Program-made: the position numbers and the translations under genes
Shown here: one piece after another, positions 31,903-59,193 of the stretch
Numbering within the stretch: the stretch's first letter is position 1
How the letters are laid out: each line of letters begins with the position of its first letter
The notes under the pieces: generated by a model
What the model saw: only the letters and a program-made list of their open reading frames with translations
What the model was told of the DNA's origin: nothing
Databases searched by the model: none
Assembly (NCBI RefSeq): GCF_000355695.1
Contig: NC_020891.1
Span: forward strand, 1,054,001-1,118,000
DNA from: Clavibacter nebraskensis NCPPB 2581
GTDB taxonomy: Bacteria; Actinomycetota; Actinomycetes; Actinomycetales; Microbacteriaceae
Length of the DNA stretch: 64,000 nucleotides
Direction of reading: 5' to 3'

Positions 31903-34900
31903 GTGATCGTCCTCCTCGCGGTGTTCCTGGTCGCCTCCGTCGGCATCCCCCTCCTCGCCCGCGCGCTCGGCGTGCGCGCGTTCGTCGTCGCCGCCCTCGT
32001 GCCGGCCGCCGCCTTCGCCTACACGGTCGCGCAGGGCCCGGCCGTGCTGCCCGACGGCGAGGTCGTCGAGCGCGTCGAGTGGATCCCGTCGCTCGGCATC
32101 ACGCTCGACATGCGGATGGACGCGCTCTCCTGGCTCCTGTCGCTCGTGGTCACGGGCGTCGGCGCCCTCGTGCTCCTCTACTGCGCGCGCTACTTCCGCA
32201 GCTCGGAGGACGGCCTCGGCCGATTCGCGGGTCTCCTCGTCGCGTTCGCGGGCGTCATGTTCGGCCTCGTCCTCGCCGACGACGTCTTCGTGCTCTTCAC
32301 CTTCTGGGAGGCGACGAGCGTCCTCTCCTACCTCCTCATCGGGCACCACACCGGCAAGAAGGCGAGCCGCGGCGCCGCGCTGCAGGCCCTCCTCGTCACC
32401 ACGGCGGGCGGGCTCGCCATGCTCGTCGGCCTCGTGATCCTCTCGGTCGCGGGCGGCACCACGAGCCTCGCCGCGCTCATCCAGGATCCGCCCGGCGGCC
32501 CGCTCATCCCCGTCGCGGTCGTGCTGATCCTCCTCGGCGCGCTCTCGAAGTCCGCCCTCGTGCCCTTCCACTTCTGGCTGCCCGCCGCCATGGCCGCGCC
32601 GACCCCGGTGAGCGCATACCTGCACGCCGCCGCGATGGTGAAGGCCGGCATCTACCTCATCGCCCGTCTCGCGCCCGGCTACGCGGACGTCCCCGGCTGG
32701 CGCGTGCTGCTCGTGGCGCTCGGCGTCGCGACGATGCTCGTCGGCGGCTGGCGCGCGCTCAAGCAGATGGACCTCAAGCTCGTCCTCGCCTACGGCACGG
32801 TCAGCCAGCTGGGCTTCCTCACCGTGGTGGTCGGCTACGGCACGCGGGACGCCGCGCTCGCGGGCGTCGCGCTCCTCCTCGCGCACGCGCTGTTCAAGGC
32901 GACCCTGTTCCTCGTGGTCGGCGTCGTCGACCACCGGGCCGGCACCCGCGACCTCCGCAAGATCAGCGGGCTAGGCCGCAAGGCGCCCGTGCTCGCGGTC
33001 GTCGCGGCGCTCGCGCTCGCCTCCATGGCCGGCCTCCCGCCCTTCCTCGGCTTCGTCGCGAAGGAGGCCGTGCTCTCGGCCCTGCTCCTCGACGCGGAGC
33101 TGGGCGGCGGCCTCGGCTGGGTCGCCGTCGTCGGCGTGTCCGTCGGATCCTGCCTCACCGTCGCCTACAGCGCGCGCTTCATGTGGGGCGCCTTCGCCCG
33201 CAAGCGCGGGGTGGACGAGGTGCAGCCTGTGCACGAGCACCTCGACTTCCTCGTGCCGCCGGCCGTGCTCGCCGTCACCGGCCTCGCGCTCGGGTTCCTC
33301 GCCTCCTCCGTCGACGGCTGGATCGCGGGATACGCGGACACGCTCCCGGCCGCGAGCGCCGGCGCCTCCGGGGAGCCCGACCACACGTACCACCTCGCGC
33401 TCTGGCACGGGATCGAGCCGGCGCTCCTCATCTCCGCGGGCACGCTCGTCGTCGGCCTCACGATGTTCCGCCTCCGCGACGGGGTCTTCGCGCTGCAGTC
33501 GCGCGTGCCGTCCTGGATCGACGCGGCCCGCATCTACTGGGCGTCGATGCGGCTCATCGACCGGGTCGCCGCGCGCACCACCGCGACCACCCAGCGCGGC
33601 TCGCTCCCGTTCTACGCGGCTCATCGACCGGGTCGCCGCGCGCACCACCGCGACCACCCAGCGCGGCTCGCTCCCGTTCTACCTCGGAGTGATCCTGCTC
33701 GTGCTCATCGGGTCGGTCGGATCCGCGCTCGCGCTCAACCGCTCCTGGCCGACCACCGCGGTGCCCTTCGACCACCCGGCGCAGCCCGTGATCGGCGTGG
33801 TGATGATCGTGGCGGCCGTCGCCGCCGCCCGCGCGGGCAAGCGGTTCCAGGCCGTCGTGCTCGTGGGCGTCACGGGCTACGGCATGGCCGCGCTCTTCGC
33901 CCTGCACGGCGCGCCCGACCTGGCGCTCACGCAGGTGCTGATCGAGACGATCACGCTCGTCGCCTTCGTCCTCGTGCTCCGCCGCCTGCCCGTCCGGCTG
34001 GGGGAGCGGAACCGGTCGGTGCACCCTGTGTGGCGCGCCTCCATCGGCATCGCGGTCGCCGCGCTCATGTCCACCGTCGCGGTCGTCGCGCTCGGCGCGC
34101 GCGTCGCGTCGCCCATCTCGCTCGAGTTCCCGCGCCTCGCCTACGAGCAGGGCCACGGCAGCAACGTCGTCAACGTCACGCTCGTCGACCTCCGCGGCTG
34201 GGACACCATGGGCGAGATCTCGGTGCTCATCGTCGCGGCCACGGGCGTCGCGAGCCTCATCTTCCTCAACCGCCGCACCGACTCCCTGCCGCGCCTCACC
34301 GCGCCGTCGCGCCGCAGCCTCATCGCCCGGCTCACCGGACGGCACGACCCCGAGGGCGCCGAGGCGCCGCTCGAGGTCGAGCACGGCGTCGGCGGGCCGC
34401 GCATGGACGCGCGCGACGCGGTCACGGACTCGCACCGCGACCAGCGCAGCCCCTGGCTCCTCGCCGGCCGCACGCTCGCCCCGCAGAACCGGTCGATCCT
34501 CCTCGAGGTCGTCGTCCGGCTCCTCTTCCACAGCCTCATCGTGGTGTCCGTGTACCTGCTCTTCTCCGGCCACAACCTGCCGGGCGGCGGATTCGCGGGA
34601 GGCCTCCTCGCGGGCATGGCGCTCGTCGCGCGCTACCTCGCGGGCGGCCGGTACGAGCTCGGCGCCGCGGCGCCCGTGGACGCCGGCCGCGTGCTGGGCA
34701 CGGGCCTCGTCTTCGCGGTCGGCACGGCGGCGGTGCCGCTCCTCTTCGGCGCCGACGCCCTCACCTCCACGTGGATCGACACCGAGGTGCCGTTCGTCGG
34801 CCACGTCGAGTTCGTCACGAGCACGTTCTTCGACGTCGGCGTCTACCTCGTCGTCGTCGGCCTCACCCTCGACGTGCTCCGCAGCCTCGGCGCGGAGGTC

Positions 34901-34978
34901 GACCGCCAGGAGGAGAGCGACCGGACGGTCGAGCAGGGAGCGGACGGCATGGAGACCGAGCAGGGGGTGAGCGTGTGA
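31903..34978 (+). pseudogene. mrpA: mrpAB (Na+/H+ antiporter subunits A+B), frameshifted by a 67 bp tandem duplication
   Basis: Two frames together encode a normal MrpA-MrpB fusion. The first 571 codons (31903-33615) are the NuoL-like MrpA antiporter module, with ADDVFVLFTFWEATSVLSYLL, KSALVPFHFWLPAAMAAPTP and HALFKATLF. The gene resumes one frame over from the second repeat copy (about 33617) and runs to 34978, encoding the MrpA C-terminal part and an MrpB domain (LFSGHNLPGGGFAGGL). A 67 bp direct duplication at 33549-33682 causes the shift; removing one copy leaves 1003 codons in one frame. Unshifted translation instead runs through about 450 Arg/Pro-rich nonsense residues into mrpC (1210 codons). 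The Mrp complex should be inactive unless the duplication reverts or is an assembly error. Confidence 0.88.
33549..33682 (+). repeat. 67 bp tandem duplication inside mrpA
   Basis: Copies at 33549-33615 and 33616-33682 are identical by eye and directly adjacent. The unit encodes the cytoplasmic segment RLIDRVAARTTATTQRG in the intact frame. 67 is not a multiple of three, hence the frameshift. Confidence 0.95.
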
Positions 34979-35535
34979 GCGTCTCCGTCACCCTCATCGT
35001 GATCATGGCCGCGCTGTACGCCACGGGCATCTACCTCATGCTCGAGCGCAGCATGACGCGCGTGCTCCTCGGGTTCCTGCTGGTGGGCAACGCGACCAAC
35101 ATCCTCATCCTCATCATGTCCGGCCGCGTGGGGCTCGCGCCCATCTACGACCCTGACGTGGATCCGTCGGAGTACGCCGACCCGCTGCCGCAGGCCCTCA
35201 TCCTCACCGCCATCGTCATCACCTTCGGCGTCTCGGCCTTCCTCATGGCGCTCATCTACCGCTCCTGGCGGCTGGCCAACGCCGACGTGGTGACGGACGA
35301 CGAGGACGACCTCGCGATGCGCGGCCCCCGCACGGGCCTCGGCGAGGAGCCCACCGTGCCCGACGATGACGACACCGAGTTCGGCACCAACGCCGAGGCC
35401 GCGATCGCCTCCGCCCGGAAGCTCCGCGACAACCGATCCGACCTGGAGGAGGCCATCGACGACTCCGCCGACGACGATGACGACCGCGACTTCCGCACGA
35501 GGCGTGCCGAGAAGGGGACGGGGGACGACCGATGA
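34975..35535 (+). CDS. mrpC: Mrp antiporter subunit C
   Basis: A 186-residue NuoK-like subunit of the Mrp Na+/H+ antiporter. Three helices (about 3-22, 28-50, 66-92) are present, with GIYLMLERSMTRVLLGFLLVGNATNILIL and the PLPQALILTAIVI signature. A hydrophilic Asp/Glu-rich C-terminal tail of about 85 residues extends beyond the family core (about 110). GTGA overlaps the mrpAB stop by 4 nt. Because it is in the frame that the broken mrpA falls into, it could also be made as the tail of a long aberrant fusion. Confidence 0.9.
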   Translation: MSVSVTLIVIMAALYATGIYLMLERSMTRVLLGFLLVGNATNILILIMSGRVGLAPIYDPDVDPSEYADPLPQALILTAIVITFGVSAFLMALIYRSWRLANADVVTDDEDDLAMRGPRTGLGEEPTVPDDDDTEFGTNAEAAIASARKLRDNRSDLEEAIDDSADDDDDRDFRTRRAEKGTGDDR

Positions 35536-50912: not shown

Positions 50913-52058
50913 ATGAGCACCACCAGCAGCACAGCCTCCACCAGCAGCACAGCCACCACCACCGGCACCGCCTTCCCCCTGTTCTTCGAGCAGACCCCGT
51001 CGGAGACCGCCCGCGCCGACGCCGAGCGGGAGGCGATCCTCGCCGACCCGGGCTTCGGCAAGCACTTCACGGACCACATGGTCCAGATCGACTGGACGCT
51101 CGACGCCGGCTGGCACGACGCGCGCGTCGTCCCGTACGGGCCGCTGCAGCTGGATCCGGCCGCGAGCGTGCTGCACTACGGCCAAGAGATCTTCGAGGGG
51201 ATGAAGGCGTACCGCCACGCCGACGGATCCGTGTGGACCTTCCGCCCCGACCGCAACGCCGCCCGCCTCCAGCGCTCGGCCCGCCGCCTCGCGCTGCCGG
51301 AGCTGCCCACCGAGGACTTCGTCGAGTCCGTGCGGCAGCTCGTGCGCGCCGACCTCGGCTGGGTGCCGACGGCCGCGGAGCAGAGCCTCTACCTCCGTCC
51401 GTTCATGATCGCCAACGAGAGCTTCCTCGGCGTCCGCGCCGCCCAGCGCGTGGGCTACTACGTCATCGCGAGCCCCGCGGGCGCGTACTTCACGGGCGGT
51501 GTGGCGCCGGTGTCCATCTGGCTGTCCACGCAGTACTCCCGCGCGGGCAAGGGCGGCACGGGCGCCGCGAAGTGCGGCGGCAACTACGCCGCGTCGCTCC
51601 TGCCGCAGGCCGAGGCCGCGTCGCACGGCTGCGCGCAGGTGCTCTTCCTCGACTCCGAGGAGGGCCGCTACCTCGAGGAGCTCGGCGGCATGAACATCGT
51701 GCTGGTGTACAAGGACGGCCGCCTGGTCACGCCCGACTCGGAGAGCATCCTCGAGGGCATCACGCGCGACTCGATCCTCGAGCTCGCGCGCGACCGCGGC
51801 CTCACGGTCGAGAAGCGCCGCGTGGAGCTGTCGGAGTGGGTCGACGGCGTCGCGTCGGGCGAGATCACCGAGGTGTTCGCGTGCGGCACGGCGGCGGTCA
51901 TCACGCCGATCGGCCGCCTGATGGGCGAGGGCCTCGATGTGGGCGACATCGACGCGCCCGCGGGCGAGCTGACGATGTCGCTGCGCCAGGAGCTCACCGA
52001 CATCCAGTACGGCCGCGTCCCCGACCGCCACGGCTGGCTCACGCGCCTCGACGCGTAG
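50913..52058 (+). CDS. ilvE: Branched-chain amino acid aminotransferase
   Basis: A 381-residue fold-type IV PLP enzyme, final step of Val/Leu/Ile synthesis. The PLP lysine is K220 in GAAKCGGNYAASL. Other family segments are YGQEIFEGMKAYR, LYLRPFMIA and the phosphate cup ACGTAAVI. AAGGAG precedes the ATG. The N-terminus is a Ser/Thr run encoded by an 18 nt tandem repeat (50921-50936 and 50939-50954) using ACA codons rare in this genome; it is probably disordered. Confidence 0.95.
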   Translation: MSTTSSTASTSSTATTTGTAFPLFFEQTPSETARADAEREAILADPGFGKHFTDHMVQIDWTLDAGWHDARVVPYGPLQLDPAASVLHYGQEIFEGMKAYRHADGSVWTFRPDRNAARLQRSARRLALPELPTEDFVESVRQLVRADLGWVPTAAEQSLYLRPFMIANESFLGVRAAQRVGYYVIASPAGAYFTGGVAPVSIWLSTQYSRAGKGGTGAAKCGGNYAASLLPQAEAASHGCAQVLFLDSEEGRYLEELGGMNIVLVYKDGRLVTPDSESILEGITRDSILELARDRGLTVEKRRVELSEWVDGVASGEITEVFACGTAAVITPIGRLMGEGLDVGDIDAPAGELTMSLRQELTDIQYGRVPDRHGWLTRLDA

Positions 52059-57037: not shown

Positions 57038-58048
57038 TCAGGCGAGGCGCCCCTTCGGCGAGCTGTCGCTCGTCTTCGACGGGTCCTTCTCCACGACGTC
57101 GCCGAGGGCGTCGTCGATGCGCGTGAGGAGCTCGGCCGGGATCTTCACGCCCGACGCCTTCACGTTCTCGTGGACCTGCTCGGGGCGCGAGGCGCCGATG
57201 ATCGCGGACGCGACGTTGTCGTTCTGGAGCACCCACGCGACCGCGAGCTGCGCCAGCGACAGGTCGAGCTCGTCCGCGACGGGCTGCAGCTCCTGCACGC
57301 GCGAGAGGACGTCGTCGTTCATGTAGCGCTTGATCATGTCGGCGCCACCCTTGTCGTCCGTGGCGCGCGAGCCCTGCGGCAGGTCCTGGCCCGGCTTGTA
57401 CTTGCCGGTGAGGACGCCCTGGGCGATGGGAGACCAGACGATCTGCGAGATGCCGAGCTCGGCGGACGTGGGGACGACCTCCTCCTCGATGACGCGCCAG
57501 AGGGCCGAGTACTGCGGCTGGTTCGAGATGAGCTGGAAGCCGAGCTCGCGGGAGAGGCCGTGCGCCTCGCGAAGCTGCTCGGGGGTTCACTCGCTGACGC
57601 CGATGTACAGCGCCTTGCCCTGGCGGACGACGTCGGCGAAGGCCTGCATCGTCTCCTCGAGCGGGGTATCGTAGTCGTAGCGGTGCGCCTGGTAGAGGTC
57701 GACGTGGTCGGTCTGGAGGCGCTCGAGCGAGCCGTCGATCGACGCCATGATGTGCTTGCGCGAGAGGCCGGTGTCGTTGTGGCCCTTGGCGCCGGTCGGG
57801 AAGTAGACCTTCGTGAAGATCTCGAGCCCGTCGCGGTTCTCATGCTTGAGCGCTTGCCCAAGGACCTTCTCGGCGACGGTGTTCGCGTAGCCGTCCGCGG
57901 TGTCGAACGTGGTGATGCCGGCCTCGAGGGCCGCCTGCACGCACTGCGTCGCGGTGTCGTTCTCGACCTGCGATCCGTGGGTCAGCCAGTTGCCGTACGT
58001 GATCTCGGAGATCTTGAAGCCTGAGTTGCCGAGGTAGCGGAATTCCAT
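57038..58048 (-). pseudogene. Aldo/keto reductase, inactivated by a single nonsense codon
   Basis: It would encode 336 residues, exactly the length of its intact neighbour at 58183-59193, to which it is very similar throughout. The N-terminal 153 residues (MEFRYLGNSGFKISEITYGNW onwards, with the active-site Asp/Tyr/Lys region) end at TGA at 57587-57589, where the neighbour has TGG (Trp in GVSEWTSEQL). The same frame continues open to the normal C-terminus, so one base change is the only visible lesion. A restart at the ATG near 57337 would give only the last 99 residues. Confidence 0.88.
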
Positions 58049-58054
58049 TCTCCG

Positions 58055-58060
58055 AGCCTA
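58055..58060 (-). promoter_or_regulatory. -10 hexamer TAGGCT of the reductase pseudogene
   Basis: TAGGCT on the minus strand ends 6 nt before the ATG at 58048, so the promoter is retained. Confidence 0.4.
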
Positions 58061-58120
58061 CGCCGCGGGCGCTGGGGGAGCCCGGGGCGGGGTCTGTCCG
58101 CCGGGTGACCGGGAGGTGCA

Positions 58121-58159
58121 CGTGCGGCCCCGCCCGAGCATCTCGGGCGGGGCCGCACG
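58121..58159 (-). terminator. Hairpin terminator of the intact aldo/keto reductase gene
   Basis: A perfect 17 bp stem (58121-58137 with 58143-58159) with loop GCATC lies 23 nt after the reductase stop. Confidence 0.7.
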
Positions 58160-58182
58160 GTGGTGCAGGAAGGGAGCGCTGG

Positions 58183-59193
58183 TCAGACCTCGCGGGTCTT
58201 CGGCGAGCTGTCCTCGGTCTTGCGCGGGTCCGTCTCGACGATGTCGCCGAGGGCGTCGTCGATGCGGGTGAGGAGCTCCGCGGGGATCTTCACGCCGGAC
58301 GCCTTCACGTTCTCGTGCACCTGCTCGGGACGGGAGGCGCCGATGATCGCCGACGCCACGTTCTCGTTCTGCAGCACCCACGCGACCGCGAGCTGGGCGA
58401 GCGACAGGTCGAGCTCGTCGGCGACGGGCTGCAGCTCCTGCACGCGGGAGAGCGTGTCGTCGTTCATGTAGCGCTTGATCATGTCCGCGCCGCCCTTGTC
58501 GTCGGTCGCGCGCGATCCGGACGGCAGCTCCTGGCCGGGCTTGTACTTGCCCGTCAGCACGCCCTGGGCGATGGGCGACCACACGATCTGGGAGATCCCG
58601 AGCTCCTTCGAGGTGGGCACGACCTCCTCCTCGATGACGCGCCAGAGCGCCGAGTACTGCGGCTGGTTCGAGATCAGCTGGAAGCCCAGCTGGTCGGCGA
58701 GCGCGTGGCCGGCGCGCAGCTGCTCGCTCGTCCACTCGCTCACGCCGATGTAGAGCGCCTTGCCCTGGCGGACGACGTCGGCGAAGGCCTGCATCGTCTC
58801 CTCGAGGGGCGTCTCGTAGTCGAAGCGGTGCGCCTGGTAGAGGTCGATGTAGTCGGTCTGGAGGCGCTGGAGCGAGCCCTCGACGGAGTCCATGATGTGC
58901 TTGCGCGAGAGGCCGGTGTCGTTCTTGCCCTTGGGCCCGGTGGGGCCGAAGACCTTGGTGAAGATCTCGATCGAGGCACGTCGCTCGTCCTTGAGGGCCT
59001 CGCCGAGCACGGTCTCCGCCTTGGTGTTGGCGTAGACGTCCGCGGTGTCGAAGGTGGTGATCCCCGCCTCGAGCGCGGCCTTCACGCACGCGGTCGCGGT
59101 GTCGTTCTCCACCTGCGATCCGTGGGTGAGCCAGTTGCCGTAGGTGATCTCGGAGATCTTGAAGCCGGAGTTGCCGAGGTATCTGAATTCCAT
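58183..59193 (-). CDS. Aldo/keto reductase (voltage-gated K+ channel beta-subunit-like)
   Basis: A 336-residue AKR family protein, an NADPH-dependent carbonyl reductase with a TIM-barrel. The family segments are TFDTADVYANTKAETVLGEAL (active-site Asp and Tyr), the Lys in IEIFTKVFGP, DLYQAHRFDYETPLEETM (His), and the cofactor site AIIGASRPEQVHEN. The closest types are the AKR6/AKR12-like subgroup with the GVSEW and VVWSPIAQGVLTGKYKPG patterns. It is the upstream member of a tandem duplicated pair; the downstream copy is broken. TACGGT ends 6 nt before the ATG. Confidence 0.9.
   Translation of the reverse strand: MEFRYLGNSGFKISEITYGNWLTHGSQVENDTATACVKAALEAGITTFDTADVYANTKAETVLGEALKDERRASIEIFTKVFGPTGPKGKNDTGLSRKHIMDSVEGSLQRLQTDYIDLYQAHRFDYETPLEETMQAFADVVRQGKALYIGVSEWTSEQLRAGHALADQLGFQLISNQPQYSALWRVIEEEVVPTSKELGISQIVWSPIAQGVLTGKYKPGQELPSGSRATDDKGGADMIKRYMNDDTLSRVQELQPVADELDLSLAQLAVAWVLQNENVASAIIGASRPEQVHENVKASGVKIPAELLTRIDDALGDIVETDPRKTEDSSPKTREV

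What the first reader, a model, noticed from the sequence alone, without database searches (positions are those of the whole stretch)
31903..35535. 67 bp tandem duplication frameshifts the mrpAB fusion gene and joins it in frame to mrpC
Positions 33549-33615 and 33616-33682 are identical adjacent copies. 67 is not divisible by three, so the MrpA frame is lost; the correct frame resumes from the second copy. Deleting one copy gives a clean 1003-codon MrpA-MrpB gene. The shifted frame has no stop for about 1.3 kb and runs into mrpC in frame, so the cell could make a 1210-residue aberrant protein. A perfect tandem repeat can revert by slippage or recombination, so this could be a reversible switch of Na+/H+ antiport, a fixed lesion or an assembly artefact.
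Basis: seen in the sequence. Interest (0 to 1): 0.78.

Follow-up and report, generated by a model that had tools for sequence, protein, structure and literature searches.

The report
Private duplication breaks sodium antiporter gene
In this one maize-pathogen genome sequence a 67-letter stretch is repeated back to back inside its only Mrp sodium/proton antiporter gene and throws the gene out of frame; the other species of the genus that were examined have one copy, so this looks like an ordinary recent mutation or an assembly mistake, not a built-in switch.

Summary
Window 33549-33615 and 33616-33682 are identical adjacent 67-mers, and the match ends exactly there on both sides. The contig length (3,063,596) equals that printed for Clavibacter nebraskensis NCPPB 2581. 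The 17 other same-genus genomes held all have one copy, with the mrpAB frame open through the site. The joint between the copies occurs in 1 of 18 genomes, this one. The two pieces show purifying selection near the level of relatives and no clear decay, so the event is recent, or not real. The long shifted frame into mrpC is a composition effect: it is also open past mrpB in 15 of 17 relatives. The break falls between the NuoL-like half of MrpA and the MbhD/MbhE/MnhB half. The genome has one MbhD match. Zero junction homology fits end-joining (a Ku gene is present) or a contig overlap kept twice better than slippage. Best reading: a strain-private spontaneous loss-of-function duplication (0.50), with assembly artefact a strong rival (0.37). 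A reversible switch has no positive evidence (0.07). Reads and conspecific strains, which would decide, were out of reach.

The parts
31903..33548 (+). 5' part of mrpA (mrpAB fusion): NuoL-like antiporter body
   Evidence: Pfam PF00662 and PF00361 on the translation of 31903-33615; ORF start; 94-95% aa identity to four named Clavibacter loci
33549..33615 (+). first copy of the 67-bp repeat, still in the upstream MrpA frame
33616..33682 (+). second, identical copy; the downstream MrpA-MrpB frame runs through this one
33683..34978 (+). 3' part of mrpAB: MrpA C-terminal domain (MbhD, MbhE) and MrpB (MnhB), out of frame with the 5' part
   Evidence: Pfam PF13244, PF20501, PF04039; Ka/Ks like relatives
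33686..33703 (+). possible internal start: GGAG (33686-33689), made by an A at 33688 where 17 of 17 relatives have C, then GTG at 33701
   Evidence: function inferred only
34975..35535 (+). mrpC, entered in frame by the shifted upstream frame
   Evidence: Pfam PF00420
35532..37124 (+). mrpD, open frame
   Evidence: Pfam PF00361
37121..37795 (+). mrpE, open frame (start codon not verified)
   Evidence: Pfam PF01899
37792..38067 (+). mrpF, open frame (start codon not verified)
   Evidence: Pfam PF04066
38064..38645 (+). mrpG, open frame
   Evidence: Pfam PF03334

Best explanation
A spontaneous 67-bp tandem duplication, recent and private to this strain (or this culture of it), has frameshifted the only mrpAB gene found in the genome. 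Ribosomes read MrpA to the end of the NuoL-like half, pass into an open but unrelated frame, and would end with mrpC fused on, so the MrpA C-terminal domain, MrpB and normal MrpC are not made well and Mrp antiport is predicted to be lost or strongly reduced. The exact ends without shared bases suggest end-joining or fill-in of a staggered break, not slippage between short repeats. Shown: the duplication in the sequence, its absence from 17 other species of the genus, the broken frame, no clear decay. Inferred: that the DNA of the strain really has it, how it arose, and the loss of function.
For: Single copy (67 bp between conserved flanks) in 17 of 17 other same-genus genomes; joint in 1 of 18. 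Copies 100% identical, 0 private substitutions in either. Ka/Ks against the nearest relative G015 is 0.121 (5' part) and 0.094 (3' part); among four relatives it is 0.067-0.105 and 0.074-0.117, and mrpD window-G015 gives 0.088: no clear decay, so recent. Ku match in the genome. Real spontaneous tandem duplications of this size are known: 3 of 25 lrp mutations in Xenorhabdus were duplications of 26-116 bp (PMC6786866, passages). One NhaA match and two Na_H_Exchanger matches remain, so loss of Mrp may be survivable.
Against: All 17 relatives keep the site single-copy and in frame, and the genome has no second MbhD match, so loss should be costly (inference). No read data or second isolate was seen; an assembly error would look the same. 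In 1.85 Mb of comparison sequence (1.05 Mb of 80 named loci around mrp, mostly drafts; 400 kb of this genome; 400 kb of G011) no perfect tandem duplication with a period above 45 was found, so such events are rare. The 5' part's Ka/Ks is slightly above the range among relatives. A review passage says that some Mrp complexes show antiport without all subunits (PMC5703873), so loss need not be complete.
Confidence: 0.5

Rival explanations
1. Assembly artefact: two contigs overlapping by 67 bp were joined end to end without merging the overlap, so the same 67 bases were written twice. The living strain has an intact mrpAB.
For: Perfect identity, no shared base at the ends, and absence from 17 other species is what an unmerged overlap gives. 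The genome was released without publication (PMC4059874, passages). Precedent: in Vibrio fischeri ES114 14 of 14 suspected expansions, 318-1264 bp, proved to be assembly errors (PMC2330054, passages). One of 4 substitutions private to this genome in the 3' flank lies 6 bases from the repeat, as a poor contig end might give.
Against: The artefacts in that paper were longer and typically had a few unique bases at either end; here there are none. No other perfect tandem duplication above period 45 in 400 kb sampled from the same genome (20 stretches of 20 kb) or in the rest of the window; other kinds of assembly error were not tested.
Confidence: 0.37
2. Reversible switch: the tandem repeat expands and contracts by recombination or slippage, turning Mrp off and on as a phase-variable trait.
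For: Two perfect adjacent copies can in principle collapse. Duplications within capsule genes that vary in phase are reported for pneumococcus (Waite et al. 2001 and 2003, titles only, in the reference list of PMC8406281), and a host-dependent reversion of Ralstonia through phcA (Poussier et al. 2003, title only, in the list of PMC6786866; that it involved a 64-bp duplication is recalled).
Against: The joint is in 1 of 18 genus genomes, and there is no junction homology that would re-create the duplication. In Xenorhabdus, prolonged culture of eight isolates with distinct lrp mutations gave no genetic reversion (PMC6786866, passages; which of the eight carried duplications was not seen). Within-species variation could not be tested.
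Confidence: 0.07
3. Functional split: the duplication divides MrpAB into MrpA-N and a separately started MrpA-C-MrpB, at the boundary where MBH-type complexes have separate subunits, and the antiporter still works.
For: The break lies between PF00361 and MbhD/MbhE/MnhB. MbhD with MbhE corresponds to MrpA-C, and P. furiosus MrpB to MrpA TM17-21 (PMC7419157, PMC8415708, passages). An A where 17 of 17 relatives have C makes GGAG 11 nt before an in-frame GTG at 33701. The 3' part is under constraint like relatives.
Against: Upstream ribosomes do not stop near the putative start; they run through in another frame to 35535. In the resumed frame between 33501 and 33780 the only usual starts are GTG at 33689, 33701 and 33761. 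Constraint is equally expected from a recent event. The GGAG match is post hoc, and its spacing is long.
Confidence: 0.06

Closest known systems
Group 2 Mrp antiporter (mrpA'CDEFG, MrpA fused to MrpB)
   Same: Gene order mrpAB-C-D-E-F-G with the expected Pfam domains
   Different: mrpAB is frameshifted in its middle
Spontaneous short tandem duplications in lrp of Xenorhabdus (26-116 bp; PMC6786866, passages)
   Same: Size and effect: a direct duplication inside a reading frame
   Different: Seen here in one deposited assembly, not in a culture experiment; the gene is an antiporter
Phase variation by sequence duplication in pneumococcal capsule genes (type 3 locus, cap8E, tts; titles only)
   Same: Duplication inside an ORF
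   Different: No evidence of recurrence or reversion here
Artefactual expansions in a finished genome (Vibrio fischeri ES114; PMC2330054, passages)
   Same: Adjacent repeated sequence that breaks an ORF and is absent from relatives
   Different: 67 bp against 318-1264 bp; no unique bases at the ends; not shown to be an error

Membership tests
Group 2 Mrp (mrpA'CDEFG) | MrpA and MrpB domains in one gene followed by mrpC-G | tested here: met
   Met as a locus type: domains in order in the window, and one frame open through the site in 17 of 17 relatives. In the window itself the two halves are in different frames. Pfam was not run on the relatives, except MbhD
Group 2 Mrp (mrpA'CDEFG) | working monovalent cation/proton antiport | not testable with these tools
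   needs a transport assay
Gene-inactivating tandem duplication | perfect adjacent copy, length not a multiple of three, absent from relatives | tested here: met
   67 bp, 100%; single copy in 17 of 17 same-genus relatives
Phase-variable (contingency) locus | recurrent copy-number change among relatives | tested here: not met
   joint in 1 of 18 genus genomes; one genome per species only, so strains of one species were not compared
Phase-variable (contingency) locus | reversion at high frequency within a clone | not testable with these tools
   no reads held
Assembly artefact (unmerged overlap) | no molecule with two copies exists | not testable with these tools
   no reads or conspecific assemblies held
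Assembly artefact (unmerged overlap) | exact copies with no junction homology | tested here: met
   also compatible with end-joining
Old pseudogene | relaxed constraint, further lesions | tested here: not met
   no stops in either piece; Ka/Ks 0.121 and 0.094 against the nearest relative; little power for young events

The most novel reading that the evidence does not exclude
A fused MrpAB was re-divided in one step, at the MrpA-N/MrpA-C boundary that MBH-type complexes keep as a subunit boundary, with a nearby point change supplying a new ribosome site, so that a still-working Mrp with separate MrpA-N and MrpA-C-MrpB chains has arisen within one species.
Probability: 0.05. Interest if true: 0.5.

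Novelty: new member of a known kind. Interest (0 to 1): 0.22.

Why it matters
NCPPB 2581 is called the type strain and was the mapping reference in the 2024 study of 41 strains (PMC11748494, passages). If the duplication is real, that strain probably lacks a working copy of its only Mrp antiporter, and salt or pH results from it would not speak for the species. If it is an artefact, the reference needs a correction at a gene that 17 of 17 other species keep. Either way a short diagnostic check settles it.

Tried and rejected
Programmed fusion MrpA-MrpC: rejected, the shifted frame is open past mrpB in 15 of 17 relatives that have no duplication. Old pseudogene: not supported by constraint. Slippage between short flanking repeats as origin: not supported, zero shared bases at the ends. 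A second Mrp locus that would make the gene redundant: not found, one MbhD match in the genome. An assembly with many perfect tandem duplications: not supported in 400 kb sampled.

Literature. (at least 3 of Clavibacter, mrpA, antiporter, Mrp): 109 papers; the ranking puts papers with more terms first and the top row has three, so none holds all four. Searches (13 of 13 rows listed; 10 of 1,956 listed) were looked at as titles and starts of abstracts only; I saw no report of this lesion there. In PMC11748494 the terms antiporter, frameshift, loss-of-function, tandem and indel have no occurrence in the main text. Other searches. No paper was read whole; one section was read (PMC5358740 section 11), the rest as passages. 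The annotation of this locus in the public record was not seen.

The first alignment of the junction had 5 of 17 relatives in the wrong orientation; it was replaced.

Full report
What was checked. The window lies at 1,054,001-1,118,000 of a single contig of 3,063,596 bases. The four best named relatives of the MrpA N-terminal half are Clavibacter loci, 94-95% identical (80 loci kept). The size equals that printed for Clavibacter michiganensis subsp. nebraskensis NCPPB 2581, now C. nebraskensis, in Table 2 of PMC4059874 (passage) and Table 2 of PMC5358740 (section 11 read). That the window is this strain is an inference from genus and exact length.

The observation. The two 67-mers at 33549-33615 and 33616-33682 are identical and directly adjacent, with identity ending exactly at both edges. 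TRF gives period 67, 2.0 copies, 100%. The list of ORFs holds one of 1,210 codons from 31903 to 35535 and one of 429 codons from GTG 33689 to 34978.

Surroundings. Pfam places Proton_antipo_N and Proton_antipo_M in the 5' part. MbhD, MbhE and MnhB lie in the 3' part, followed by MrpC, D, E, F and G. This is the group 2 arrangement, with mrpA fused to mrpB (PMC5703873 and PMC8415708, passages). The duplication lies between the NuoL-like body, MrpA-N, and MrpA-C, which corresponds to MbhD plus MbhE in MBH (PMC7419157, passages).

Relatives. All 17 other same-genus genomes match the region in two pieces that overlap by one repeat length. Measured directly, the distance between the conserved flanks is 67 bp in 29 of 29 loci: 17, 4 named loci and 8 longer stretches, the last 12 being, by contig and place, again from those 17 genomes. 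The true frame is open through the site in all 29. It is open to a stop upstream of the start in the 12 longer loci, and 1,009-1,018 codons stop to stop in the 11 same-genus rows. Together this covers the whole gene in 16 of 17 genomes; for G013 roughly the first 50 codons were not examined. A scan of the 18 genus genomes finds the joint of the two copies, with up to 3 mismatches, once, in this genome. One genome per species is held, so nothing is known here of other C. nebraskensis strains.

The long shifted frame. After the duplication the upstream frame is open for 1,850 nt from the end of the second copy. In the 17 relatives the corresponding frame, which is not the gene's frame there, is open past the end of mrpB in 15 and stops at 1,847-1,871 nt in 14. 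The exceptions stop at 680 and 1,256 nt, or run more than 3,300 nt. The fusion to mrpC is therefore a by-product of coding sequence in this GC-rich genus.

Age. Pieces without the repeat were aligned apart with eight relatives. Against the nearest, G015, Ka/Ks is 0.121 for the 5' part, 0.094 for the 3' part, 0.087 for mrpC and 0.088 for mrpD. Among four relatives the 5' part ranges from 0.067 to 0.105 and the 3' part from 0.074 to 0.117, so the window's 5' value is slightly above. Changes private to the window at codons otherwise invariant are 10 synonymous and 3 non-synonymous in the 5' part and 7 and 1 in the 3' part; the yardsticks G015 and G016 have 2 and 3, 7 and 2, and 1 and 2, 7 and 1. 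The two copies carry no private substitution. There is no clear decay, so the duplication is young, or absent from the DNA. The test has little power for young events.

Background of such duplications. With period 20 or more and perfect, 3 of 80 named loci around mrp (1,047,265 bases, mostly draft assemblies) have any, periods 21-45. The 29 loci L083-L111 and the 8 stretches have none. In 400 kb of the same genome there is one (period 30, low complexity), and in 400 kb of G011 two (periods 24 and 21). None is above period 45. The duplication is unusual, but the sampled part of the genome is not full of them.

Origin. No base is shared at the ends, so the event does not look like slippage between short repeats. 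A Ku homologue is encoded, so end-joining of a staggered break is possible; LigD was not tested. An unmerged contig overlap gives the same picture. In Vibrio fischeri ES114, 14 of 14 suspected expansions were assembly errors, though longer and typically with a few unique bases at the ends (PMC2330054, passages). Real duplications of 26-116 bp made up 3 of 25 lrp mutations in Xenorhabdus (PMC6786866, passages). The choice between the two is close.

Consequence if real. [quoted passage not shown] subtilis (PMC8415708, passage), and two acidic residues in its C-terminal region are essential in Bacillus Mrp (PMC5703873, passage). Against full loss, the same review notes that some Mrp complexes show antiport without all subunits, and P. 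furiosus Mrp lacks MrpA. The genome holds one MbhD match, so no second Mrp was found; it also holds one NhaA match and two Na_H_Exchanger matches. The predicted effect is loss or strong reduction of Mrp antiport with partial cover from these; this is inference.

Most novel reading not excluded. One of four substitutions private to this genome in the 3' flank (1,290 aligned columns), at 33688 and only 6 bases after the repeat, makes GGAG 11 nt before an in-frame GTG at 33701. Together with the position of the break at a natural subunit boundary this allows a split but working Mrp. It is post hoc, the upstream ribosomes would pass through in another frame, and I give it 0.05.

Verdict. Observation confirmed. 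It is a private, recent tandem duplication in one assembly, of a known kind; a switch has no positive support; whether the living strain has it needs reads.

Noticed in passing
window 57051-59193: Two stretches 1,145 bp apart, 72-98% identical per 50-base step from 57051 to 58050, with an exact 53-bp run. The second lies in a 336-codon minus-strand ORF at 58183-59193 that reads like an aldo/keto reductase (recalled, not searched): a tandem gene duplication.
   Followed up: partly
window 33688: A where 17 of 17 same-genus relatives have C, 6 bases after the repeat; it creates GGAG near in-frame GTG codons.
   Followed up: partly
window 50918-50972: 18-bp repeat, 3.1 copies, just after an ATG; read by eye it would give a Ser/Thr-rich stretch.
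   Followed up: no
L137 15639-15709: Low-complexity CGGCTG-rich run in the same genome, the only perfect tandem run of period 20 or more in the 400 kb sampled.
   Followed up: no
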